Source of the DNA: a virus
Reading direction: 5' to 3' (one strand)
IMG/VR virus record: IMGVR_UViG_3300048586_000904
Span: 1-53,548 of that record
DNA: 53,548 nucleotides
The translations under genes and the position numbers were made by a program. Under the pieces are notes generated by a model that saw only the letters and a program-made list of their open reading frames with translations, searched no databases and was not told the origin of the DNA. Shown one piece after another: positions 19,026 through 30,981 of the stretch. Position 1 is the first letter of the stretch. Each line of letters begins with the position of its first letter.

Positions 19026-21296
19026 CTATTCAGTCCGACGCCGCTTTTGCATTGCAGAAAAGCTCATCCGTTCTTTACGAATCACGGCTTTACCATCGAC
19101 GTCAGGTAGGACCACACCTTGCATGGATGCCGCGACTGCAGTGCCAACCAGGCAATCGAACCAGTGGTTGTCGGGCTGCTCGGGTCGCTGCTTCCATTCG
19201 TTAACAATACGGCCACGAGCTTCGGTCTTAATAAAATACTCTGATGTCAATTGTTCCGAAAACATACGATGTGTTTCAACACTTGTTCCAAAGAGTGAAA
19301 GGCATCCACGATCCCCCATCGAAACGCGAAGCCGAGCATGAGTAAACGACTTCCACCAGTTGGTGTCGTAAATCACGTGTCGGATCGCTCGTTTGCCCTG
19401 AACGTTGGGGATGCGCCAGTTAAGACCAACCCTGTCGCCGGGGCGGCGTCGATACTCGCTGAACGGTTGACTTGAAGCTCCCACGAATCTCCCGTGGCTT
19501 GGCATGATCACAGCGGCATGTTTGGATTGCCTGCAGAACTGATAGACGACGTCCGTTGATTGGCCCCAGTTGGCGTCGATCAAACAGCGACCGATTCGCA
19601 TGGCAGCCCCATCGTCTCGTTGCCACTCTCGATCGAGTAGCTTGGATGTCAGCGATTCAAGGCCGGCGTAAATCGAACCTTCGAGCCCGGTTCCCATAGC
19701 CTCGGAGCCCAGCGTCTGCCGAGCTTCCCGTAATGTGAAGTACGGTCGCTGCTGATCAGGATAACAACCATAGTCGATGACGTATCCTGTGAAATCATCT
19801 TCCCATGCAGCGACCACATAGAAGAGTAGGCTTTGCTGGACGTCGATAAATGCGGAGAGGTTGTTTGCTCCGATGGAAACCAAGCCACGATCCAAGCGAT
19901 TGATCTTGCTTGCAACCTCTGCAGGTTTGAGCATCCCATCGCTAACCGTCTCGGTTGGCAGCGGTTGGTTCTGGTATTCTGCGAAGAACGCAGCTTCATC
20001 CTGAAGCTTGAGGTTCATAGCATGCTGGATTGCCGAAAGTTCATCGTAGTTAAATCGTTCCTGCCAAGCGACAACAGCGCCGTCATCCATAGCGGCTTGG
20101 TTCTGACGATAGAATTCGGTGGCTGCTTCACCACCATCACCACCTCGCATCCCTTCCGCGCGGATCTCGGCATAGCGTTCCCAAAGCATTTCGTTCTTTG
20201 GGAAGGAGTAAACCATCTTGGTTCGTTCCCCATTCCATTCGGGATGTCGATTGCGATCGAGGATATTGTCGGCCATGTCACCAGGGCGAATCACCGTGCA
20301 GGGCATGATGCCCGAGATCTTCTTCCCCGGACCAGCCAAACCGAGCACGGCACCGGCAAGGATGCTTTCCCGATTTGCGCATTGCGAAAGCGAACGCGCG
20401 CTCTCATCGGTTTGCGGATCATCGAGCACCACGAGGCTTGGACGGACCGTTCGACCGTCGGGGCGCTTGAACTTCATACCACGGATACGGCCAGTTAGGC
20501 CAGCGACCTTGATAATCGCACCGCTGGCACTGCTACCTTCGATGGTTGGCAGCACAACCTCTTTCGCTGTCCATCCGATCTGCGTGCGTTTGCCTTTGTA
20601 TAGCTGACCATTGGCGCGATTCGAAATTCCATCGAGTGCTTGGATCGGAAAGCAAACCTCGGGAAAGTCGGCTAAGAGCAATTCGTTACTATCGAGTTCG
20701 GTTTTGATCGAATCGAGCATGTCACAGGCGTGGCCTTCGTCGCTACCGATCAGACAGACGAAGTTCCGATGTCCGTAGAGCACCGCCCAGATACAAGCGA
20801 CTTCGGCTATCGACGATTTTCCACTGCCGCGTGCCATCGCTAAGGCAAACAATCCCCCATGCACAACGGCTTGTTCAATTTTGTTGATGACCTTGACATG
20901 GTCTGGAGACCACGCGAGGTGAAAGGTGAGTGGAAAGTACGTCTCGCAAAAGTACCTGAAGTCTCGCGATGCGCGATCTTTGCGATCGGGATTATCTACG
21001 CTGGGGAGTTCTCCGATGTCGCGTCCGGCAAGTGCGAGCGCTGCATTGCGTGCCCGAGCTCGCTCCTTCATCGCTTCGTACGAATCCACCCCTGAGTTTT
21101 GTTTGGGCGTATGGCGTACGGCATGCATCCAGGCGCAATAGCGAAGGAGATCGACCGTCTTGTTGTCACCGATACGGGCGCCGGCGCGTTGCCGATGACG
21201 ATACAACTGCCGCTCGCTGATCACCTCGCCTAGCGGCGTTGAGTTGAGCAGCCGGCATAGCTCACTTGGCTTTAGTTTTCGAGGATCACTCGCCAC
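19026..21296 (-). CDS. terminase large subunit (GpA-like)
   Basis: This 756-residue packaging motor and nuclease has an N-terminal region (about 10-65) that looks like a small helix-turn-helix segment, as if a small-terminase-type domain were fused. The ATPase follows with Walker A in MARGSGKSS (154-162) and Walker B in LVVLDDPQTDE (from 288). The C-terminal RNase H-like nuclease begins near LSAFIDVQQSLLFYVV and includes LIDANWGQSTDVV, each with an acidic residue in a strand-end position. It translocates DNA into the prohead through portal. The start overlaps the 68-residue gene by 11 bases. Confidence 0.9.
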   Translation of the reverse strand: MASDPRKLKPSELCRLLNSTPLGEVISERQLYRHRQRAGARIGDNKTVDLLRYCAWMHAVRHTPKQNSGVDSYEAMKERARARNAALALAGRDIGELPSVDNPDRKDRASRDFRYFCETYFPLTFHLAWSPDHVKVINKIEQAVVHGGLFALAMARGSGKSSIAEVACIWAVLYGHRNFVCLIGSDEGHACDMLDSIKTELDSNELLLADFPEVCFPIQALDGISNRANGQLYKGKRTQIGWTAKEVVLPTIEGSSASGAIIKVAGLTGRIRGMKFKRPDGRTVRPSLVVLDDPQTDESARSLSQCANRESILAGAVLGLAGPGKKISGIMPCTVIRPGDMADNILDRNRHPEWNGERTKMVYSFPKNEMLWERYAEIRAEGMRGGDGGEAATEFYRQNQAAMDDGAVVAWQERFNYDELSAIQHAMNLKLQDEAAFFAEYQNQPLPTETVSDGMLKPAEVASKINRLDRGLVSIGANNLSAFIDVQQSLLFYVVAAWEDDFTGYVIDYGCYPDQQRPYFTLREARQTLGSEAMGTGLEGSIYAGLESLTSKLLDREWQRDDGAAMRIGRCLIDANWGQSTDVVYQFCRQSKHAAVIMPSHGRFVGASSQPFSEYRRRPGDRVGLNWRIPNVQGKRAIRHVIYDTNWWKSFTHARLRVSMGDRGCLSLFGTSVETHRMFSEQLTSEYFIKTEARGRIVNEWKQRPEQPDNHWFDCLVGTAVAASMQGVVLPDVDGKAVIRKERMSFSAMQKRRRTE

Positions 21297-21492
21297 GGCC
21301 CATCTCCTTTGCTTGCCAAGCGCTATAGTTCACGAGGTTGATCGTGCCATCGGCGTTCGCGGGCGCACCTTCATGGAGATCACTTCGGATCTTCTCGGCA
21401 TCGATCCGTTCTCGGTAGGCAGCGGACAGAAGTTTCGCGGCTTGTTCGATCGAGAGTCTCGTCGGATCGACCGGCTGTTTGTCTTCACTCAT
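21286..21492 (-). CDS. small DNA-packaging-associated protein
   Basis: This 68-residue protein contains RLSIEQAAKLLSAAYRERID and INLVNYSAWQAKEMG. It looks like a short helix-turn-helix type DNA-binding segment with a tail and overlaps the terminase start. Position and size suggest a minimal small terminase subunit or a packaging cofactor. The pattern 'T-I-N-L-V-N-Y-x-A-W' echoes KTVDLLRYCAWM in the terminase N-terminus, so the two may be related by duplication. This is the first minus-strand gene of the packaging operon; divergent plus-strand genes begin about 275 bases to the right. Confidence 0.6.
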   Translation of the reverse strand: MSEDKQPVDPTRLSIEQAAKLLSAAYRERIDAEKIRSDLHEGAPANADGTINLVNYSAWQAKEMGRGE

Positions 21493-21691
21493 CGCATTCC
21501 TCCGTGACTTGGTAGTTCAAAACGTGGGGCCACTGTTTGCGCCGTGTCGCGTTTCCCCATCCACTTCGCCTGGTTATGCGAAGCATGTTTGAACGCGACG
21601 GTGGCGTAATGTTGGGGCACCGGTGGCTTCTCGAAGAACATGCGAAATTGCTGGAAAAACATGATGCAATTCGCTGGATGATTCCTCTCCC

Positions 21692-21736
21692 GCAAGGCTT
21701 CATGTGTGTTGTCGCGACGCGAAGAACGCGACGAAA
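21692..21736 (+). promoter_or_regulatory. conserved upstream element, copy A
   Basis: This is one of three related stretches found before plus-strand genes (also 22851 and 23892). It reads GCAAGGCTTCATGTGTGT, then TCGCG and a CGA-containing stretch. GTCGCG and CGCGAC form an inverted repeat across about 22 bases. It lies 32-76 bases before the amidoligase ATG. A promoter, operator or mRNA leader element is likely; I cannot tell which. Confidence 0.4.
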
Positions 21737-21767
21737 CACAAACCTTGCACCCCAGAGGAACATCACC

Positions 21768-22625
21768 ATGAATGCAAACGAAATTTTCTTTGGTCTGGAA
21801 TTTGAGACGACGCTTCCGAACAGTGACACCACACCAATCGGCCCCTACCACAACGGATACCAAGTCCCTTGGTTGCCAACCGGATGGAAAGCGGAACGCG
21901 ACGGTAGCATCCGCCCTGAGAGCCCATGCCGTAAAGGATGCGAGTTCGTAAGCCCCAAGCTCAAAGGTTACGGAGGCCTCAATGAAATCGAAGAAGCAAT
22001 CGACAAGATCAACGAGCACGGAGGAAAGGTAAATCAAAGCTGCGGCCTGCACATTTCGATCGAGTGGAATGGCGACGCAGCCGCCCTCGCACGGTTGATC
22101 TCCTTGGTTGGTAACCACGAGAAAGCGATTTTCGCTAGTACCGGAACACGCCGCCGCGAACAAACGATCTACACCAAGCAAATCAAGCAATACGGCGACA
22201 AAGACGCCGCGAAGAATCGATGTGAAGCGGATCGCTACCACCTGCTGAACCTTACCCACCTGGCCGCCGGTAGAAACCGAATCGAATTTCGGGCTTTTGC
22301 TGGAACGCTCAACAAAACCAAGGTGGCGGGATACCTGATGATGGTTTTGGGATTGGTAGAGTTGGCTTTGAGCACCAAACGCTGCAGCGATTGGGACTAC
22401 GTCAAGAAAGAGGGAGCAAAAAGCTGCTGGGACCGACCGGGCGCCGGCCTTGGGGAAACGGAACTCAACCGATTGTTCTACCGACTGGGGTGGACCAAGG
22501 GGTGGTATAAGGGCGCCCTTCGCGACAAGGTCTACGGAGAGATCGCAGGCGAGTCGAAACCAGATTGGAGAACCATAAAGGCAAAGCTCCTCGATCTTTC
22601 TAGGAAATACGACCGAGTCGCGTAG
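21768..22625 (+). CDS. amidoligase-family enzyme
   Basis: This 285-residue protein has the diagnostic amidoligase (COOH-NH2 ligase) motifs in order: FGLEFETTLP at residues 7-16 (acidic metal/substrate residues), DGSIRPESPCRKGCEFVSPKL around 45-65 (core GCEFVSPKL), and SCGLHISI near 90. RIEFRAFAGTLN lies near 170. The family uses ATP to form amide bonds between carboxylates and amines and occurs in phages and mobile elements, where it may modify peptides or proteins. The ATG is chosen because AGAGGA precedes it; the open frame runs 77 codons further upstream through a conserved leader element. Encoded opposite the late operon, it heads a small plus-strand cluster. Substrate unknown. Confidence 0.85.
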   Translation: MNANEIFFGLEFETTLPNSDTTPIGPYHNGYQVPWLPTGWKAERDGSIRPESPCRKGCEFVSPKLKGYGGLNEIEEAIDKINEHGGKVNQSCGLHISIEWNGDAAALARLISLVGNHEKAIFASTGTRRREQTIYTKQIKQYGDKDAAKNRCEADRYHLLNLTHLAAGRNRIEFRAFAGTLNKTKVAGYLMMVLGLVELALSTKRCSDWDYVKKEGAKSCWDRPGAGLGETELNRLFYRLGWTKGWYKGALRDKVYGEIAGESKPDWRTIKAKLLDLSRKYDRVA

Positions 22626-22850
22626 ATCAAACACGACCGAAACCGAAGTCAACAAAGTTTTGGTTTCTCTTGATCCAAAACCTTGAGGCGAAAGCACGTC
22701 ACTTTCTTGGCGATTGGTGTATGTAACTAATGACGGCCTAAACCAAATCGCAACATCATGCGTCACGTTTTGCCGGAACGGACGCGACTCAGCGAAACAT
22801 TCAGTTTCTTCTTGGAATCCTCGCATGTTCGGCTTGAGGTTATGCAAACC

Positions 22851-22881
22851 GCATGGCTCCATGGTGTCATCGCGTAAACGA
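22851..22881 (+). promoter_or_regulatory. conserved upstream element, copy B
   Basis: This element reads GCATGGCTCCATGGTGT followed by ATCGCG and AAACGA and ends about 33 bases before the 85-residue gene at 22914. It aligns with copies A and C, including a TTG or CTG 17-18 bases upstream of the GCATGGCT core. The rest of the 288-base gap (22626-22913) holds a seven-base inverted repeat, GTTTTGG/CCAAAAC at 22657-22681, and no gene that I can support. Confidence 0.4.
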
Positions 22882-22913
22882 TTCGAAACCGAGTTCCCAA
22901 CGAAGACACAAAC

Positions 22914-23171
22914 ATGACCAACGCAAGCAACCAACACGCAGCAACCGACGCGACCCTTCGCCAAATCTTCAAGGCGATGGACGCCCACCAAGCCCAAGAG
23001 ATCCGCGAAGCCTATTACAAGGCAATCGAGGGATTGATGACCTTGGCAGAAGCCCTCGAAGTCGCTGACGCACAACAAACCCCCAGCGCCGGCCCGCTTC
23101 TCACCGAACACTTCCACGCCGTCCAAGCGTTGGACGCCATGAAGAACAGCCGCCTCGGCAAGATCCTCTAA
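22914..23171 (+). CDS. small helical protein, unknown function
   Basis: This 85-residue, Ala-rich helical protein is of unknown function, with no membrane segment or cysteines. A central segment, YYKAIEGLMTLAEALEVADA, looks like an amphipathic helix pair. It follows conserved element B, so it has its own leader, and is followed 30 bases later by the next small gene. The ribosome site is weak. Coding is supported by codon pattern and by consistent spacing with the next two genes. Confidence 0.6.
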   Translation: MTNASNQHAATDATLRQIFKAMDAHQAQEIREAYYKAIEGLMTLAEALEVADAQQTPSAGPLLTEHFHAVQALDAMKNSRLGKIL

Positions 23172-23201
23172 ACCCCAGAACATAACGAAGGAGAAATCAA
23201 C

Positions 23202-23459
23202 ATGAAGCTCGACACCTTGATCGAAATCTTGAACGACTACCGCGAAGAGTTCGGAGGCGACGCGGAAGTGCGATTGATGACCCAACAAAACTGGCCCTTT
23301 GAGAACCGTATTTGCGGCGTAACGAGCGGGCGCGACATGAACGAAACGGATGAGGACGATGACCAAGATGTCGCCGACGACCAAACGGTTTACATCGTCG
23401 AAGGGGGACAAATCTGCTACGGCAGCAAGAGGGCTTGGGAAAACTACAAGGATAGCTGA
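23202..23459 (+). CDS. small conserved phage/planctomycete protein
   Basis: This 85-residue acidic protein opens with MKLDTLIEILNDYREEFGGD and contains AEVRLMTQQNWPFENRI and VYIVEGGQICYGSKRAW. The combination 'helix, EVRLMTQ-PFE, VYIVEG-Q--YG' is a pattern I recognise from small phage and plasmid proteins without known function. A clear AAGGAG lies seven bases before the ATG. A run of acidic residues (DEDDDQDVADD) sits in the middle. It is transcribed with its plus-strand neighbours. Confidence 0.7.
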   Translation: MKLDTLIEILNDYREEFGGDAEVRLMTQQNWPFENRICGVTSGRDMNETDEDDDQDVADDQTVYIVEGGQICYGSKRAWENYKDS

Positions 23460-23465
23460 ACGCAC

Positions 23466-23705
23466 ATGTACATCGGGCAACTTCATTTGGTAACCGACCT
23501 CGAAGACGGAGATCGTGCCTATCCAGAGGCGAACGTCTCGTACGAAATCGAATCGATTGACGACTCTTCGCTCAATACGACCGTCGCGTATGTCGAGCGA
23601 CGAGGGAATCGGCTGATTGCAAGAGGATGCAACGGACGGGATTACGCCGTCTCGGGCTTCGATGGTTACGAACTTTACGCGGTTCGAAAGCCGCCACAGC
23701 GATGA
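23466..23705 (+). CDS. small unknown protein
   Basis: This 79-residue protein is predicted to be beta-rich, begins MYIGQLHLVTDLEDGD and has no recognised motif. It starts seven bases after the preceding gene and is followed after 20 bases by a strong intrinsic terminator, so it is the last gene of this small transcription unit. The ribosome site is poor; translation may be coupled to the gene before it. Real coding is likely from the tight spacing. Confidence 0.55.
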   Translation: MYIGQLHLVTDLEDGDRAYPEANVSYEIESIDDSSLNTTVAYVERRGNRLIARGCNGRDYAVSGFDGYELYAVRKPPQR

Positions 23706-23724
23706 TGATTGCCCGCTTCGCGAC

Positions 23725-23761
23725 AACGCCCCACGTTTGCGACGTGAGGGCGTTCTTTTTT
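23725..23761 (+). terminator. intrinsic terminator
   Basis: AACGCCC pairs with GGGCGTT and an inner CACGT pairs with ACGTG, giving a long stem with a short loop, followed by C and six T residues. It ends the unit that includes 23202-23705. The remainder of the gap up to 23951 holds conserved element C. Confidence 0.85.
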
Positions 23762-23891
23762 CGATTGGCGTCATTTCCCCCAGATGCAATGCGACGCGAC
23801 TGTGGCCAAACGGTTGCGATTGTGGGGCTCGGAAACATTCTTCAAAAAAGCATCGAACTACTTTTTGAATTGCCTTGCTGTTTATCAACGT

Positions 23892-23923
23892 GCATGGCTC
23901 ATGTGTGTATACGCGAAAGCGAA
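23892..23923 (+). promoter_or_regulatory. conserved upstream element, copy C
   Basis: This element reads GCATGGCTCATGTGTGT, then ACGCGAAAGCGA, 29-60 bases before the gene at 23952 and just after a terminator, so it must include or lie close to a promoter for that gene. It aligns base by base with copies A and B. Confidence 0.45.
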
Positions 23924-23951
23924 TTGATAACCCAAACGAAGAGATGCATAG

Positions 23952-24266
23952 ATGACTCACCACGACCTCGACCTGACGCTTACCAAGATCAGCCACCGAA
24001 CCCCTGGGGCTGGAGGTTCTTGGGTCCAAGGGAAGATCAACAACGAATACCGATTCGATGCCCTGGTCTTCTCGGAGCACGCGGAATGCGAATCGTACGA
24101 ATTGGGAAGAAGCAAGATTTCGAAGCTTTGGATCCAACGCCTTTCCGATCGCGCGGTGATGTTCAACTTCGACCGCGGGTTGGATGTCGCGGCGGTCAAC
24201 ACCGAGGTTCAGGTGGTGGTTGATTTTCTTTGCGAAGGACTCTCCGACTTGGTCTTTGGTCAATAA
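23952..24266 (+). CDS. small conserved protein, unknown function
   Basis: This 104-residue protein contains GGSWVQGKINNEYRFDALVF and SKISKLWIQR, a two-strand pattern typical of a small conserved phage or planctomycete family of unknown function. No membrane segment, cysteine pair or catalytic motif stands out. It is the only gene between a terminator and a pair of tandem hairpins, so it may be a single-gene unit with element C as its leader. Confidence 0.6.
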   Translation: MTHHDLDLTLTKISHRTPGAGGSWVQGKINNEYRFDALVFSEHAECESYELGRSKISKLWIQRLSDRAVMFNFDRGLDVAAVNTEVQVVVDFLCEGLSDLVFGQ

Positions 24267-24273
24267 GCCGAAA

Positions 24274-24315
24274 CGCGGAGAGGATCCGCGTCGCCGATCG
24301 GTGGTTCGATCGGCC
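24274..24315 (+). other. two tandem hairpins between genes
   Basis: ACGCGGA/TCCGCGT form a perfect seven-base stem with a five-base loop. GCCGATC/GATCGGC form a second seven-base stem directly afterwards. No T-tract follows, so a simple terminator is unlikely. The hairpins may be an mRNA processing or stability element before the HARE-HTH gene. Confidence 0.45.
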
Positions 24316-24359
24316 TGACGATGGCAGCCAACCACGAACATGAACACAAGGTGATCAAG

Positions 24360-24944
24360 ATGAAGAAGGCAGACGTAAAGATCGGCGGTAAGTATTTCGC
24401 GAATGTTTCCGGCAACCGATGTGAGATCCGAATCGATGCGGAGAAACCGCGTGGCGGATGGGATGCTACGAATCTGGCCACAGGCAAGAAGATTCTTATC
24501 AAAAGCGCACAGCGTCTTCAGGGGGAGGTGACGACGCGAGCCGGCCAAGCCAAGGTGACCACCGAGGGAAATGTCACCGTGGTCGAGAATGAGCCGGCAA
24601 CTGTCGAATCGTTCGGGGAGACTGCGACCAAGGTGGCCGTTCTGAAGAAGCCTCGTAAAGCCAAACCAGCTGCAACCGAATCGGCGGCGGCCGAATCGAA
24701 GACGAGTGGCAAAAAGCGAATGAGCTGCATCGAAGCGGCATTGAAGGTCCTCTCCGAATCGGCTGAACCCATGAACACGCAACAGATGATTGCCGCTATG
24801 GAAGCGAAGGGGTACTGGACGAGCCCGGGAGGAAAAACTCCTCACGCGACCCTCTACAGCGTGATCCTTCGCGACTTGGCTAAAGGCGATTCGAGCCGGT
24901 TTGTAAAAGCCGAACGCGGACGCTTTACGGTTTCCAACAAATAA
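24360..24944 (+). CDS. HARE-HTH-domain protein
   Basis: This 194-residue protein has an N-terminal beta domain (KADVKIGGKYFANVSGNR, GGWDATNLATGKKI, with IKSAQRL), a Lys/Ala-rich linker (about 85-125), and a C-terminal winged helix of the HARE-HTH type (CIEAALKVLSESAEPMNTQQ, MEAKGYWTSPGGKTPHATLY). HARE-HTH domains accompany restriction and DNA-modification factors and bind DNA or recruit partners. I start it at the ATG with AGGTG seven bases upstream; another in-frame ATG 39 bases earlier has no site. The linker composition suggests a flexible tether. Probable role: nucleoid or DNA-modification-sensing accessory factor. Confidence 0.75.
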   Translation: MKKADVKIGGKYFANVSGNRCEIRIDAEKPRGGWDATNLATGKKILIKSAQRLQGEVTTRAGQAKVTTEGNVTVVENEPATVESFGETATKVAVLKKPRKAKPAATESAAAESKTSGKKRMSCIEAALKVLSESAEPMNTQQMIAAMEAKGYWTSPGGKTPHATLYSVILRDLAKGDSSRFVKAERGRFTVSNK

Positions 24945-24962
24945 GCCGAAGGCGATGCAATC

Positions 24963-25181
24963 ATGCGAATTCGATTGAAGAGAGGCGACCGCATACGGTT
25001 GGTCTCGATGCCTGATGATCCCGATCCAATCCCGGTCGGGATGCTTGGAACCGTCACCGAGGTTCATGAGCATCGAGACTGGATGCAGGTCGAGGTCGAT
25101 TGGGACAACGGCCGCTCCCTGATGTTGACCCTTCCCGATGACTGCATTGAGATCATCGATTCCCAGAACTCCGAATTCTGA
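24963..25181 (+). CDS. DUF4314-domain protein
   Basis: This 72-residue protein is nearly entirely a DUF4314 domain: GDRIRLVSMPDDPDPIPVG, GTVTEV, then WMQVEVDWDNGRSLML. The family is a small SH3-like barrel with a conserved 'D-P-x-P-x-G-x-x-G-T-V' loop, frequent in phages and mobile elements, of unknown function; RNA, DNA or protein binding is plausible. It follows the HARE-HTH gene by 18 bases and ends 12 bases before the decayed gene. Confidence 0.8.
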   Translation: MRIRLKRGDRIRLVSMPDDPDPIPVGMLGTVTEVHEHRDWMQVEVDWDNGRSLMLTLPDDCIEIIDSQNSEF

Positions 25182-25193
25182 AGGGACCACACC

Positions 25194-25511
25194 ATATCGA
25201 CGCGAGCAACGATTGCCCATTCCGATAGCGATGGGAGTTACCACGCTACGTACCTGCATTTCGATGGATACCAAGACCACGCCGGCAGAGTCCTCTAAGA
25301 ACATTACACATCTATCGAGTCGGCATGAACGTTGGTCGTAGGCGGCGACATTCGTCCGGTCGCTAACGATGGAATGCCCGAACGATTCACCGACCGCAAC
25401 CGCGCGGTTGTCATGCCTACTCGCGCAGCCTTGCATGAATTCGCTAGGAACTGCGGAGCGGAATACATCTATGTCTTCGAGGACGAGTCTTGGCATTGTC
25501 ATAAGCGGTGA
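25194..25511 (+). pseudogene. decayed small phage gene with lost start and two stops
   Basis: One uninterrupted phase runs through this stretch and reads STRATIAHSDSDG, YHATYLHFDGYQDHAGRVL, stop, EHYTSIESA, stop, TLVVGGDIRPV, then MPERFTDRNRAVVMPTRAAL to YIYVFEDESWHCHKR. The beginning matches a common small family that opens M-[ST]-R-A-x-I and has 'HFDGY' followed by 'L-x-EHY'. The start position holds ATA (25194) after an AGGGA site, TAA lies at 25296 and TGA at 25326. No frameshift is needed. All three lesions can be explained by C:G to T:A changes (ATG to ATA, CAA to TAA, CGA to TGA). The reading is direct; the family match is from memory. Confidence 0.75.
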
Positions 25512-25521
25512 TCGCGACCTC

Positions 25522-26919
25522 CTATCGCATGTTTTCCTCGCGCACTTTCATTGCGATTGGTGATTCGCCGGTTCGCTCAAGGATTGCTGGCTTGCCTGTA
25601 AACCTTTGGTACCTATCAACAATTACGTCAGCGTAAAGGCAATCGAGTTCCATCAAGAAGGCGTTCCGACCGCATTGCTCGGCGCCGATCAAGGTCGAGC
25701 CACTTCCACCAAACAAATCGAGAACATTCTCGCCAGGCACGGAAGAGTACTGCATCGCTCGCACCGCGAGCTCCACTGGCTTTTCGGTGAGGTGGATCAT
25801 CGATTGCGGATTGACCTTCTTCACTTGCCACAGATCGGTTGCATTGTTAGGTCCGTAGTACTTGTGGCCCGCCCCTTCCTTCCAACCGTAGAACGCCCAC
25901 TCATGCGCGCCCATAAAATCCTTCCGAGTCAAAACGGGGTGCTGCTTGTCCCAAATGATCGATTGGGAGAAATACAAACCATGCTTGGCAAGGAATGGTG
26001 GATAGTTACCACAGTTGGCGTAGCCTCCCCAAATGTAGAAGCAACGACCGGGCAAAAGTACGCGTGCGATGTTCCCAAACCACGCATCGAGCAATCGATC
26101 GAACTCGTTGTCGCTGACAAAGTCATTCGCGAGGGGACGATCCTTGGGCCGAAGCTTCTTATGCGTTGCAGCGTGCTTCGGTTTCCCCGTCTCATGATCG
26201 ACGCCAAAGGAAGCAGCGTTCCCTTGTCCTTGCTTGAGTTTTCCTGACGCGGCGTCGTTGGTAAACGAAGACAAACCGGCCGCGATCGCGTTGTTCGATC
26301 GAGGTTCCACCTTCACATTGTAGGGTGGGTCTGTGTTGCAAAGATGAATTGCATTGCCGGCCAACAAGCGATCCAGATCAGCAGGACTCGAGGAATCGCC
26401 ACAGAGCAATCGATGATTTCCGAGGATCCAAAGATCCCCTGGCTTAGTGATCGCAGCATCTGGAGGTTCCGGGATTTTATCGGGATCGGTCAAGCCTTCG
26501 TTGACTCCGGTATCCATCAGCTTCGCAAGTTCCTCCGCGTTGAACCCAAGCAACCCGAGGTCGTAGTTCGCTTCCTGTAATGCCGACAATTCGATCGGCA
26601 ACAGATCATAATTCCAGTCCGCGATCTCAGCGGTCTTGTTATCTGCGATGCGATACGCTCGAACTTGCTCTGGCGACAGGTGCGCCGCTACAACAACGGG
26701 GACCCGATCCAGCCCGAGCTTCTGCGCGGCTTTCAATCGCGTATGGCCAACGATGATGACGCTGTCGCTATCAACCACCAATGGCTGCGCGAAGCCGAAT
26801 TCCTTGATCGATGCTGCGACTGCGTCAACGGCTTTATCGTTGTTGCGCGGGTTGTTTTCGTAGGGACGAACTCGATCGAGGGTCCACATTTCAATCTGCA
26901 AAGCATTGATGGTTGACAT
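25522..26919 (-). CDS. ParB-domain DNA methyltransferase (beta class)
   Basis: This 465-residue protein has an N-terminal ParB/sulfiredoxin-like domain (YENNPRNNDKAV, VIIVGHTRLKAAQKLG at 54-69), then an N4-cytosine/N6-adenine methyltransferase. DPPY is at 197-200 and the SAM-binding FGGSGS at 403-408. Catalytic motif first and SAM motif last defines the beta order, as in CcrM. No partner endonuclease gene is adjacent, so it is an orphan modification enzyme of the type phages use to protect their DNA or to mark it for regulation. GGAAGGA precedes the ATG. The region to its right (26920-27011) holds no gene. Confidence 0.88.
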   Translation of the reverse strand: MSTINALQIEMWTLDRVRPYENNPRNNDKAVDAVAASIKEFGFAQPLVVDSDSVIIVGHTRLKAAQKLGLDRVPVVVAAHLSPEQVRAYRIADNKTAEIADWNYDLLPIELSALQEANYDLGLLGFNAEELAKLMDTGVNEGLTDPDKIPEPPDAAITKPGDLWILGNHRLLCGDSSSPADLDRLLAGNAIHLCNTDPPYNVKVEPRSNNAIAAGLSSFTNDAASGKLKQGQGNAASFGVDHETGKPKHAATHKKLRPKDRPLANDFVSDNEFDRLLDAWFGNIARVLLPGRCFYIWGGYANCGNYPPFLAKHGLYFSQSIIWDKQHPVLTRKDFMGAHEWAFYGWKEGAGHKYYGPNNATDLWQVKKVNPQSMIHLTEKPVELAVRAMQYSSVPGENVLDLFGGSGSTLIGAEQCGRNAFLMELDCLYADVIVDRYQRFTGKPAILERTGESPIAMKVREENMR

Positions 26920-27496: not shown

Positions 27497-27967
27497 TCAT
27501 GAGTAGCCTCGGATGATGTTGCCTGCTGCCTTCCAGAGTTCGATTGCATTCGTAGGCGTCCAGTTGCGAACGTTCTCGGCACCACCACCGGCGCCATGCC
27601 CCATTTCCCAATAGGTCACGTCGGGATTGATTCCGAATGCGGCTGATGCGTCGGCAGGAATCGTTTCCTCTTCGCCGTTTGGCTTGTTACTAGCGCCAAA
27701 GGAGAAGTCCATGCAGCGTCGGCCAGCAAACGCTGCGACTTCGTCGAAGGGTTGCACGTCGATCAGAAGCACATGGGTGTCGGGGCACTCGGAATGACCG
27801 CATGGAAACTCCACACGGAAGCTTGGCGTCCAACCAACGAGGTCGATCGGCTCATAGTCCCACTTCCATTTCGCTTGATCGAAGAAGCATGCCCATTGGG
27901 CTTCGAGACGGGAACGAAACTGGACGCCGTTGTAGAGGGTGGACCGAGACTCAAATGCGTGATTCAT
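27497..27967 (-). CDS. PD-(D/E)XK-like nuclease-fold protein
   Basis: This 156-residue protein opens with NGVQFRSRLEAQWACFFDQAKWKWDYEPIDLVGWTPSFRVE; the useful core is FRSRLEAQWACFFD followed by WDYEP and W-x-P-x-F. This 'RSRLEA-WA-F-D--WxYEP' pattern is widespread in phage proteins and resembles the N-terminal part of a PD-(D/E)XK nuclease fold. A following HVLLIDVQP could carry a catalytic acid. The C-terminal half is unrecognised. It lies beside the repeat array and the primase-helicase, so a replication or DNA-processing role fits. Confidence 0.6.
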   Translation of the reverse strand: MNHAFESRSTLYNGVQFRSRLEAQWACFFDQAKWKWDYEPIDLVGWTPSFRVEFPCGHSECPDTHVLLIDVQPFDEVAAFAGRRCMDFSFGASNKPNGEEETIPADASAAFGINPDVTYWEMGHGAGGGAENVRNWTPTNAIELWKAAGNIIRGYS

Positions 27968-28019
27968 ATCGCGGGTACCTTTCGAATTTGGGATGAGTGA
28001 GGACCAGTTGTTTTGGCTT

Positions 28020-28368
28020 GCGGACGTTGCGGACGTTGCGGACCTTTTTCCTATGCGAATACATACAGGGGAAAATTACGTGTTTTCCCCCCCAATACAG
28101 CAGATAACCTTTAAACGTCCGCAACGTCCGCAGATGAATCGAACTACCAATGATTTCATTGACGAAACGGATGCGGACGTTTGAGTGAGCAACGTCCGCA
28201 CAACGTCCGCAAGTGGCCTCAACGTCCGCACGAAAGTGTGTCGAAAGTGGCAAAATGGGAGAAAAACCATCCGTCGAATCCCGTTCTTTTGGTGTAATGA
28301 GTGGCTAAATGTTGCGGACGTTGTCCAAATTTGCGGACGTTGCGGACCTACGGCCTATAAAGGTCCGC
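28020..28368. repeat. array of GCGGACGTT repeats; candidate replication origin
   Basis: Ten exact copies of the nonamer GCGGACGTT occur in about 320 bases: forward at 28020, 28029, 28173, 28314 and 28333; reverse at 28114, 28123, 28191, 28202 and 28221. GCGGACC variants lie at 28038, 28342 and, inverted, 28362. Two forward copies and two reverse copies flank a dyad at 28068-28090. The array fills the gap between the 3' end of the primase-helicase and the nuclease-like gene, without a convincing gene inside. Clustered short repeats beside a replication gene suggest iterons; a regulatory array is the alternative. Confidence 0.75.
28068..28090. repeat. dyad GGGGAAAA / TTTTCCCC within the repeat array
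   Basis: A perfect eight-base inverted repeat has a seven-base centre (TTACGTG). Its midpoint (28079) nearly coincides with the midpoint of the flanking repeat pairs (28075). The dyad could extrude as a hairpin or be an initiator-binding or strand-opening site. Confidence 0.7.
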
Positions 28369-30981
28369 AGGGTCGTGCGTGACTGCTTCTGTAGACTCTA
28401 GGCATACCTGGTAGGTCGTATACCGACGCGTTGTCGTCTTCCGAAATGTCGCGATAGAACCGTCATCTAAATCGAACCGTTCGTCGACAAAGCGCCCGGC
28501 GACGATGCCCATCCGTGTCGTCTGAGACCGTGATGTTCCACTGCCTAAGTCGGATTCCAAGAGGCCGTTTCGCATTGCAAGGTCAACGAGCTCAGCGGCC
28601 GTCCATGTGCCCTGCGGATGAAGTGCGAGCACGCCAATCAGCTCTTCGAACTCGCGGCGAGTTTCATCCATCTCGCTGGCGGCGTCTTCCGCATTGATCA
28701 TGAAGTCTGGTTCACCATTGGCGTCCAGAATGCCGCCGATGATGTTGCCCCAGCCCTTTTTGTTGAACCGTGTTTGAACCTTAGCAAGAGGCATGCCGCT
28801 GGCCTTCCAGCGTTCGACCATGTTTACGAGTTCGCCCAGCAACTGCAGCCGATGTGTTTGAACGTACCCCTCCGGATCGTCCATCGAGAAGGATCGCTTC
28901 GTGGGATCGCCTTCGTGGTGCAGATTGATGACCACGCAGCGAGTAATGAGGTCACGGCTTACATCAGGCGAGTTGGCAGTGATACAAAACAGATGTGAGT
29001 TCTCAGCGCGGATCTCTTGCGAAAACCCCAACAAACGAAAGGATAGAATCGGATCGGTGATAGACCGCTCGAGGCAAGCCGAATCGATCTTGGGATTGCG
29101 GCCACGGGCCTTGGCGTTATCGATGATGATGGTCGTCACGCCACGCCGGACGATTGTTCCTAAACGTTTCTCGAACTCTTCGTCGTTCGCGTTGTACGAT
29201 GCGGTTTCCACATGATTGCCATCCCGGAGAATTGCCAGAATCTGAGCAAGAACCGACTTGCCCAACTCGGGTTGATTCCCATTGAATAGCACAGCCGGCT
29301 TAGAACCGATGAAGCGTGAGACGAGCAGACCTGTAAGCAGAATGCCAATGTAATTGGTGCGATCGGCCGGCTTCCGCCAACAGAAGTCTCGCAACAACGC
29401 GTCGAGATGCTTGGTCCCCTCGACGGGATCGATGTTAGGACCAGCATAAAAGAACCCGGTTTTGGGATCGAAACCAGGGCTGACCAATCGCCAATCTTCC
29501 GTGTAAATTGGGTTGTGGCTAAACAGCCGGATGGCTGGAAGGCGTTCTCTTTGCCCCACATTGTTGAGCCAGGTGTTCGCATACGAGGATGGGAGCGGCT
29601 TGTACTCACCCCCGTCGTCATTCACGAAAAAGAACTCGACATGCTGGTTGAGTAGTCCTGTCAATTCTGCCGAGGAGAGAACCGGCGAGATGGATTGCTC
29701 CCTCACCACGACCATTTGCTCCACCCGATTGAAACAGGAGCCGGTGGCCAGCAATCGCTCGGTGATTTGGTCCATGGTCGTGGCCACAGGTGTTGAACGC
29801 GAGTCGATCGTAATGGTTCGGCGCTCGTCCGACTCCTCTACCTGCTGACCACCCGTGGGCTCAGGTACTGTAGGACTTTCCTGTGGCAAACGCTTCTTCA
29901 AGCGTTCGCACAAAGTAGCCCGCACATCGTATTCGCCACTCTCCCAGGTTAAGTCGAAGTAGCGGCGACCTCGCTCTGCGAACTTACCTACCGACTGGAG
30001 CCGATTCCAGACCTCATCTCTTGCAATCCCATTCCGAATCGCATAACAGCAGACAGCAAAATCAGCCTCGGAACGTGCACCATCGGGAGCGATTGCGCAT
30101 GCGGCAATGAGTTCGGAGAGCTTGTCCGATTTTCCAGCCGATAGTTTACGAACCGCAGGCAATGGCATCGCCTCGATCTGCCGCCGGCGTTTCGTAGATT
30201 CGCTCGTCTTTGCGAACTTCTGAAACGCATCCAAAGAATACCGCCGGCATCCATCACATTCGATCAATTCCGCTTTGATCGGTGTGCGACCATTTCGTTG
30301 ATCTTTGCGATTCAATGTGCCCGGCAGTCGGAGCAACCGAGTGAGGTCTGTCGTATGATCACCGCTGATCGCAGCCGCGATGCCAGTTAAAAGGTCTTGG
30401 GCCTGAAGTGCTTTCGGACTTGTTTTGGTCAAATGATGGCGCTGATCCACAAAAACACGATCTTTACCATCCAGTATGTATCGTCTCGGTTTCTTTCGTC
30501 CATCGCTACCGAGAGCCCACTCCGTTTCAACGGGAGGTGGATCGCCAGCGTCGTCGATTAGGAATGGGAGATCCAGCAGCCAGTAGAGATGCACACCATT
30601 CCCACTACTCACAATCGCCGTAGGCGAAGGCATCGACTGGGATGCGCACCGTTCAATGGATTGTGCAACGCTGCATCCATCAATATCGGCCCACAGGCAG
30701 CGAATAACCCGAATCTGCCAAGCGAGGTCAAATCGACCTTTGTTGCCTACTCGTGGACAGACCCCGAAAAACAAATTGGTACGTTCGGACTCGGAGCTTT
30801 TGACCAGCCGATCGAGTGTCTGCTCGAGCGTTACGGCCTTGGCGGGCCGATAGCAAACATTGCGATAATCGACGCGGCTGCGTTTTCGTCCACTTTCATT
30901 CCAAGTCTCCACGGGACGAAAGAGGATGAGATCGGGCGGATCATACAATGTTGTCAATAAGGTGATCGCTGGATGAGTCAA
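28348..30981 (-). CDS. AEP-type primase fused to a P-loop helicase
   Basis: This 877-residue replication protein has an N-terminal archaeo-eukaryotic primase/RepB-like domain with catalytic D99-x-D101 in CLWADIDG, the His of SSGNGVHLYWLL (H131), and the R-x-LPGTLNRK motif near 217-226. The C-terminal ATPase has a P-loop in FNGNQPELGKS (568-576, with NQPELGKS slightly unusual because the first Gly is displaced) and a Walker B-like VTTIIIDNAK near 612-621. It would start and unwind at the origin; the repeat array lies directly after its stop. It overlaps the small upstream gene by ATGA. Confidence 0.88.
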   Translation of the reverse strand: MTHPAITLLTTLYDPPDLILFRPVETWNESGRKRSRVDYRNVCYRPAKAVTLEQTLDRLVKSSESERTNLFFGVCPRVGNKGRFDLAWQIRVIRCLWADIDGCSVAQSIERCASQSMPSPTAIVSSGNGVHLYWLLDLPFLIDDAGDPPPVETEWALGSDGRKKPRRYILDGKDRVFVDQRHHLTKTSPKALQAQDLLTGIAAAISGDHTTDLTRLLRLPGTLNRKDQRNGRTPIKAELIECDGCRRYSLDAFQKFAKTSESTKRRRQIEAMPLPAVRKLSAGKSDKLSELIAACAIAPDGARSEADFAVCCYAIRNGIARDEVWNRLQSVGKFAERGRRYFDLTWESGEYDVRATLCERLKKRLPQESPTVPEPTGGQQVEESDERRTITIDSRSTPVATTMDQITERLLATGSCFNRVEQMVVVREQSISPVLSSAELTGLLNQHVEFFFVNDDGGEYKPLPSSYANTWLNNVGQRERLPAIRLFSHNPIYTEDWRLVSPGFDPKTGFFYAGPNIDPVEGTKHLDALLRDFCWRKPADRTNYIGILLTGLLVSRFIGSKPAVLFNGNQPELGKSVLAQILAILRDGNHVETASYNANDEEFEKRLGTIVRRGVTTIIIDNAKARGRNPKIDSACLERSITDPILSFRLLGFSQEIRAENSHLFCITANSPDVSRDLITRCVVINLHHEGDPTKRSFSMDDPEGYVQTHRLQLLGELVNMVERWKASGMPLAKVQTRFNKKGWGNIIGGILDANGEPDFMINAEDAASEMDETRREFEELIGVLALHPQGTWTAAELVDLAMRNGLLESDLGSGTSRSQTTRMGIVAGRFVDERFDLDDGSIATFRKTTTRRYTTYQVCLESTEAVTHDPADLYRP

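What the first reader, a model, noticed from the sequence alone, without database searches (positions are those of the whole stretch)
28020..28368. Iteron-like array of ten GCGGACGTT nonamers flanking a perfect dyad beside the primase-helicase
Ten exact nonamers in both orientations plus three shortened variants fill the gap. Paired copies face each other around an eight-base inverted repeat whose midpoint is within four bases of the centre. Next to an AEP primase-helicase, this looks like a replication origin of a kind not usually described for siphoviruses.
Basis: partly seen in the sequence, partly recalled or inferred. Interest (0 to 1): 0.7.

Follow-up and report, generated by a model that had tools for sequence, protein, structure and literature searches.

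The report
Phage origin with swappable initiator code
Beside its copying enzyme this planctomycete phage carries a cluster of short repeats that is almost certainly its DNA replication start site, and related phages have swapped or rewritten the repeats together with the matching DNA-reading tip of the enzyme, so the enzyme's sequence largely predicts the repeat.

Summary
In detail: ten exact GCGGACGTT nonamers plus three variants lie at 28020-28368, with a GGGGAAAA/TTTTCCCC dyad centred 3.5 bases from the midpoint of the inner convergent pairs. No shuffle of the region comes near this. The array lies immediately 3' of a TTG-started AEP primase/putative SF3 helicase (28348-30981, minus) and overlaps its stop codon. 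All but one of about 38 relatives with a complete C-terminus and downstream DNA keep an array there; the exception is a decayed gene. The anatomy is kept: a >>>< cluster, then two head-to-tail repeats facing two or three inverted ones across 67-95 nt. The repeat sequence differs: GCGGAC, CCGGAC/TAGGAC, GCAGAC, GCGGAAC, GCCGAAC, GCTGAAC. It changes together with the primase's C-terminal winged-helix domain. Against one relative, DNA is about 93% identical over 15 kb but 55% across exactly that domain plus the array. Between two other repeat classes, the only class-fixed residues in the whole protein lie in that domain and its tail. In the RXG wing subfamily, N, K and Q go with G, C and T (15 of 15 loci). 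Best explanation: a replication origin read by the primase's own C-terminal domain, as in SaPI Rep/ori and pRN1. No binding or replication was tested.

The parts
28348..30981 (-). 877-aa primase-helicase (TTG start): AEP primase domain (motif ADIDG 98-102, SSGNGVHLYW 125-134), putative SF3-like helicase (Walker A GNQPELGKS 568-576, Walker B TTIIIDN 616-622), C-terminal winged helix
   Evidence: Foldseek of AlphaFold model: S-2L PrimPol AEP domain 6zp9 TMt 0.75, RepB' 3h20, pRN1 primase; motifs; no Pfam hit, PHROG DNA polymerase/primase 7e-8. Helicase region is modelled at low confidence
28393..28674 (-). C-terminal winged-helix domain (residues 770-863), proposed repeat reader; wing residues 849-856, key position R853 (codon 28423-28425)
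   Evidence: AlphaFold H-H-H-strand-wing-strand at pLDDT about 90; winged-helix matches, Z 6-7 only; co-variation
28020..28368 (.). repeat array: 10 exact GCGGACGTT plus 3 variants
28020..28131 (.). origin core: convergent head-to-tail repeats (28020-28046 and 28114-28131) around a 67-nt spacer; 19-nt perfect inverted arms, 76-nt loop
   Evidence: same anatomy in 25 loci
28068..28090 (.). dyad GGGGAAAA-N7-TTTTCCCC in the core spacer (window-specific; not conserved)
28173..28229 (.). second repeat cluster, three plus one inverted (>>>< read in the primase direction)
28314..28368 (.). third repeat cluster, overlapping the primase stop codon
28000..28640 (-). module that differs as a unit from L006/G004 (last ~90 codons of the primase plus the array): 55% identity inside, about 92% around
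27497..27967 (-). neighbouring nuclease-like ORF; not the likely reader (92-98% DNA identity to L006, which has other repeats)

Best explanation
The array is the phage's origin of replication. The primase-helicase binds it through its own C-terminal winged helix; the convergent repeats on either side of the 67-95-nt spacer position two oppositely facing helicase assemblies, the spacer is melted, and the AEP domain primes there. The winged helix and the repeats form a matched specificity pair that is exchanged as one module or rewritten together, mostly through the wing. Shown here: the array, its conserved position and anatomy, and its co-variation with that domain. Inferred: binding, melting, priming, the double-hexamer geometry, and the selective reason for switching (incompatibility with resident related elements, or escape from a factor that targets the origin).
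For: (1) Array directly 3' of the primase in about 38 loci (viral contigs, MAGs, chromosomes), while repeat sequence and downstream gene differ. (2) Conserved >>>< then >>[67-95]<< anatomy, even in L087, a distant helicase relative matched over only part of the model. (3) W against G004/L006: median 93% identity per 100 bp over 15 kb, 55% across the C-terminal domain plus array; protein 94.1% over residues 1-782, 56.8% over 783-863. (4) Between CCGGAC-type and GCAGAC-type phages the only class-fixed columns in the protein are 837, 850, 851, 853, 854, 855, 861 and tail positions 867-872, whose codons overlap repeats. (5) Wing RXG: N with TGCGGAAC (5/5), K with TGCCGAAC (9/9), Q with TGCTGAAC (1/1); seven of these were read from the wing before the repeats. 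On a tree without the C-terminal domain both traits change five times and all independent N/K contrasts agree (3 supported, 4 in all). (6) Two copies in one chromosome (L072, L090) carry different wings and repeats. (7) The domain models as a winged helix.
Against: No replication, binding or read-depth data. GC skew shows no switch at the array. L153 has an RKG wing and no array, though its frame holds a stop. The independent contrasts are few (sign test p = 0.25). Helicase class rests on motifs: no family hit, poor model there. The winged-helix matches are middling (Z under 8). The RXG rule does not extend simply to the GAC-type repeats (R at X goes with GCAGAC and GCGGAC).
Confidence: 0.86

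Rival explanations
1. The array is an operator: the winged helix (or another regulator) binds it to control transcription of the primase operon or the downstream gene, without being the origin.
For: Repeats overlap the primase stop codon and precede the next gene; initiators often autoregulate. Co-variation with the wing shows who reads it, not what for.
Against: It lies at the 3' end of the primase gene, and the downstream gene differs between relatives (nuclease-like, ParB_N-type, small ORFs) while the array stays with the primase. The convergent core with a fixed 67-95-nt spacer is unusual for an operator but matches known origins (PMC4234260).
Confidence: 0.07
2. The nuclease-like protein or the ParB_N-methyltransferase reads the array (partition, methylation or packaging site).
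For: A ParB_N/methylase gene lies nearby in the window (25522-26919) and ParB-type ORFs lie next to the array in L032, L099 and L104.
Against: Both regions are about 90% or more identical at DNA level between W and L006/G004 although the repeats differ. No ParA was identified among the ORFs examined. The terminase (19026-21296) is about 7 kb away.
Confidence: 0.04
3. Repeat drift without function: tandem repeats homogenised by slippage.
For: Some contigs carry pure tandem GCGGACGTT runs without any primase (L018).
Against: Copies lie in both orientations at conserved positions, spacings are kept across very different sequences, and all change together with the wing.
Confidence: 0.02

Closest known systems
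SaPI Rep/ori and the related SCCmec Cch2 (Ubeda et al. 2007, as described in PMC7581432)
   Same: [quoted passage not shown] in SaPI5 the protein is also a primase-helicase fusion; [quoted passage not shown]
   Different: Host range, repeat sequences and protein sequence differ; here the element is a siphovirus-like phage, and repeat identity can be largely read from the wing.
pRN1 ORF904 replicon (PMC4234260), with phage BIP-1 proposed as an analogue
   Same: AEP + helicase + C-terminal winged helix; origin directly 3' of the gene; a large inverted repeat (21-nt stem, 58-nt loop) whose sequence is poorly conserved inside conserved flanks. The core here has 10-25-nt perfect arms and 53-85-nt loops in most loci.
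   Different: pRN1 is described as lacking repeats (iterons); here the arms are clearly repeat units that recur elsewhere in the array.
PLE RepA/ori modules and the origin-directed nuclease Odn (PMC8263062)
   Same: DNA-binding domain of the initiator and origin co-vary and are exchanged as a module while the rest of the protein is conserved.
   Different: The exchanged PLE domain is RepA_N, there is no AEP fusion, and there are three ~30-bp repeats. No Odn-like antagonist was found here: a search with the winged helix returned only the known primase contigs.
Phage P4 alpha/ori
   Same: Multifunctional initiator with a winged-helix origin-binding domain and repeats (described in PMC4234260).
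   Different: P4 alpha's primase is given there as the bacterial (Toprim) type; here it is AEP.

Membership tests
SaPI-type Rep/ori replicon | Repeats directly downstream of the initiator gene | tested here: met
SaPI-type Rep/ori replicon | C-terminal domain determines origin specificity | tested here: met
   by co-variation only; no binding assay
SaPI-type Rep/ori replicon | Sequence relationship to SaPI Rep/Cch2 (DUF927 or Primase_Cterm/D5_N) | tested here: inconclusive
   no Pfam family at E<=0.01 for the 877-aa protein
pRN1-type AEP-SF3-winged-helix replicon | AEP primase domain | tested here: met
   Foldseek: 6zp9 TMt 0.75, 3h20, 3m1m
pRN1-type AEP-SF3-winged-helix replicon | SF3 helicase domain | tested here: inconclusive
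   Walker A/B motifs present; region modelled poorly, no family hit
pRN1-type AEP-SF3-winged-helix replicon | C-terminal winged helix | tested here: met
   (middling Z, but helix/strand order and pLDDT fit)
pRN1-type AEP-SF3-winged-helix replicon | Large inverted repeat 3' of the gene | tested here: met
pRN1-type AEP-SF3-winged-helix replicon | Origin without repeats (iterons) | tested here: not met
   10 exact plus 3 variant repeats
PLE RepA/ori module | RepA_N-type DNA-binding domain at the N-terminus | tested here: not met
   the co-varying domain is C-terminal, on an AEP protein
P4 alpha/ori-crr | Toprim-type primase | tested here: not met
   AEP fold
Any functional replication origin | Supports autonomous replication | not testable with these tools
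   needs an experiment

The most novel reading that the evidence does not exclude
The wing of the initiator's C-terminal winged helix acts as a compact specificity code: in the R-X-G subfamily the residue X alone (N, K or Q) sets the fourth base of the TGCxGAAC repeat, and the array is rewritten to match. Planctomycete phages and integrated elements thereby move between many mutually compatible origin specificities. The pRN1-type 'stem-loop' origins would be the same device, their arms being facing repeat pairs.
Probability: 0.45. Interest if true: 0.75.

Novelty: new variant of a known kind. Interest (0 to 1): 0.6.

Why it matters
Origin recognition by initiator helicases of mobile elements is known in a few cases, but how specificity changes in evolution, when some ten DNA sites must change with one protein, is largely unsolved. 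This family gives a natural series of protein-origin pairs, from near-identical proteins that differ essentially in the wing to a whole-module exchange, with predictions that a simple binding assay can test. It also identifies a likely origin and initiator for planctomycete phages; no paper on one turned up in the library searched.

Tried and rejected
GC skew as an origin marker: uninformative. Repeat sequence alone as a marker: the four contigs found by GCGGACGTTGCGGACGTT hold no related primase. Pfam, PDB sequence and PHROG searches: little beyond 'primase'. The central dyad as a conserved element: its sequence is not kept, and spacer folding z-scores range from -2.3 to -0.2. A free-standing copy of the winged helix, such as an Odn-like antagonist: none in viral contigs. 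Foldseek of the C-terminal model gave no significant hit; the VIA-align second look gave Fur/Zur/IclR-type winged helices at Z 6-7, within the range its own note calls common. P4 alpha and SaPI structures were not among the listed rows, which is not evidence of absence. Distant helicase relatives L047, L076-L082 and L088 show no array; AEP relatives with a different helicase (L036, L038, L046) have only three copies of a different repeat. The full-length AlphaFold model is poor between residues 364 and 487 and in the helicase core.

Full report
Observation. The window is a 53,548-base IMG/VR virus record with tape-measure, terminase, head-protease and serine-integrase genes, so a temperate siphovirus-like phage; relatives of its primase lie in planctomycete MAGs and chromosomes. 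The array is 3' of the primase-helicase gene and overlaps its stop codon.

The protein. The 877-aa product has an AEP primase domain: the best structural match is the cyanophage S-2L PrimPol AEP domain, TMt 0.75, followed by RepB'. It also has Walker A and B motifs of a helicase and a C-terminal domain that AlphaFold models as a winged helix with high confidence (also seen in the full-length model). The helicase region is modelled poorly, so 'SF3' is from motifs only.

Relatives keep the array, not its sequence. Relatives were collected from viral contigs, genome contigs and several hundred planctomycete genomes (the draws overlap). About 38 distinct loci have a complete C-terminus and downstream DNA, and all have an array at the same place; the one further locus, L153, has no array, and its frame holds a stop. 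Repeat classes seen: TGCGGACGTT (window), TCCGGACGTT with TTAGGACGTT (L005-L013, L044), TGCAGACGTT (L014, L015, L039, L040, L105, L108, L150, L151), mixed TGCAGAC/TGCGGAC (L045), TGCGGAAC (L032, L033, L072, L103, L104), TGCCGAAC (L016, L034, L074, L090, L099-L102, L111), TGCTGAAC (L107, degenerate), TGCCGGAC (L112) and CGGGACC (L073). The layout is constant: a cluster read >>>< near or beyond the stop codon, then a core of two head-to-tail repeats, a 67-95-nt spacer, and two or three inverted repeats. Even the distant helicase relative L087, with CGCAACC repeats, has it. The core forms 10-25-nt perfect inverted arms with a 53-85-nt loop in most loci; in the window the arms are 19 nt with a 76-nt loop, folding z = -6.3 as a single strand.

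The array and the winged helix change together. Compared with G004 (L006), the window is collinear over 15 kb at a median of 93% per 100 bp. The longest trough is 28000-28640, 55% identical, exactly the last ~90 codons of the primase plus the array; one shorter trough lies at 25308-25600. The protein is 94.1% identical over residues 1-782 and 56.8% over 783-863. The flanking nuclease-like gene (92-98% identical DNA) and the ParB_N-methylase region do not follow the repeats. Between CCGGAC-type and GCAGAC-type phages, the only columns of the whole protein fixed differently are 837, 850, 851, 853, 854, 855 and 861, in the strands and wing of the winged helix, and 867-872 in the tail. The tail codons overlap repeats, so those differences are partly forced by the DNA and are not independent evidence.

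A wing rule. In proteins with an R-X-G wing, X = N goes with TGCGGAAC in five loci, K with TGCCGAAC in nine, and Q with TGCTGAAC in one. The rule was formed on seven loci; seven more wings were read and the arrays, and all seven agreed. That test was not fully blind, because the protein tail shown is encoded by repeat-bearing DNA. The Q case was noticed only when the arrays were read, so it is not a prediction. On a tree of the helicase core without the C-terminal domain, residue and base each change five times, and every independent N/K contrast is concordant (3 on well-supported branches, 4 in all). The sign test cannot reach significance with so few (p = 0.25); a Fisher test on the 14 N/K loci gives 0.0005 but ignores relatedness. 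K facing G and Q facing A on the opposite strand is familiar base-reading chemistry (established knowledge), so the rule is plausible, but contact was not modelled. One chromosome (G389) carries two copies of different class (L072 TGCGGAAC, L090 TGCCGAAC), as expected if like copies interfere; this is a single case.

Mechanism. The best-supported reading is a replication origin recognised by the C-terminal winged helix of its own primase-helicase. Position, symmetry and spacer suggest two facing helicase assemblies and melting between them; this is inferred from SaPI Rep (two hexamers on repeats downstream of rep; PMC7581432) and from pRN1 (PMC4234260). Why the specificity changes is unknown. 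PLE satellites switch origin and initiator domain together, apparently under attack by an origin-directed nuclease (PMC8263062), and incompatibility between co-resident elements is an alternative.

Comparison and novelty. Each component has a precedent: C-terminal reader with downstream repeats (SaPI, Cch2), AEP-helicase-winged-helix protein with origin 3' of the gene (pRN1), and module exchange (PLE). What is new here is the family in planctomycete phages and chromosomes, the fine mapping of the specificity change to the wing, and a predictive residue-to-base relation. I file it as a new variant of a known kind, not as a member of the SaPI or pRN families.

Noticed in passing
window 21489-25502 (-): The 1337-aa minus-strand ORF is very likely spurious: the plus strand carries a series of plausible shorter genes there and the AT skew is opposite.
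   Followed up: partly
L036, L037, L038, L046: Chimeras: N-terminal AEP domain 62-80% identical to the window's, but a different helicase and C-terminus, with three copies of a different repeat (AGTGCGCAG or AGTGCGCCA) around a CATGCGCGCACGCGCATG-type dyad downstream.
   Followed up: partly
L072 and L090 (genome G389): Two related primase-array copies in one chromosome with different repeat classes; consistent with compatibility between co-resident elements.
   Followed up: partly
L083, L085, L084, L086, L087: Distant helicase relatives also have local repeat arrays (TGCGGGTAT, TCTATATTCG, GGGGAT, CGCAACC) at or downstream of the gene's 3' end.
   Followed up: partly
L018:4773-4862: Ten perfect head-to-tail GCGGACGTT copies in an unrelated viral contig without this primase; looks like a simple tandem repeat.
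   Followed up: no
L005, downstream of the primase (window 27550-27850 equivalent): The neighbouring nuclease-like gene carries a large internal deletion in this otherwise very close relative.
   Followed up: no
window 25522-26919 (-); also directly downstream of the array in L032, L099, L104: ParB_N domain fused to an N6/N4 DNA methylase in the window; similar ParB-like ORF starts follow the array in several relatives.
   Followed up: no
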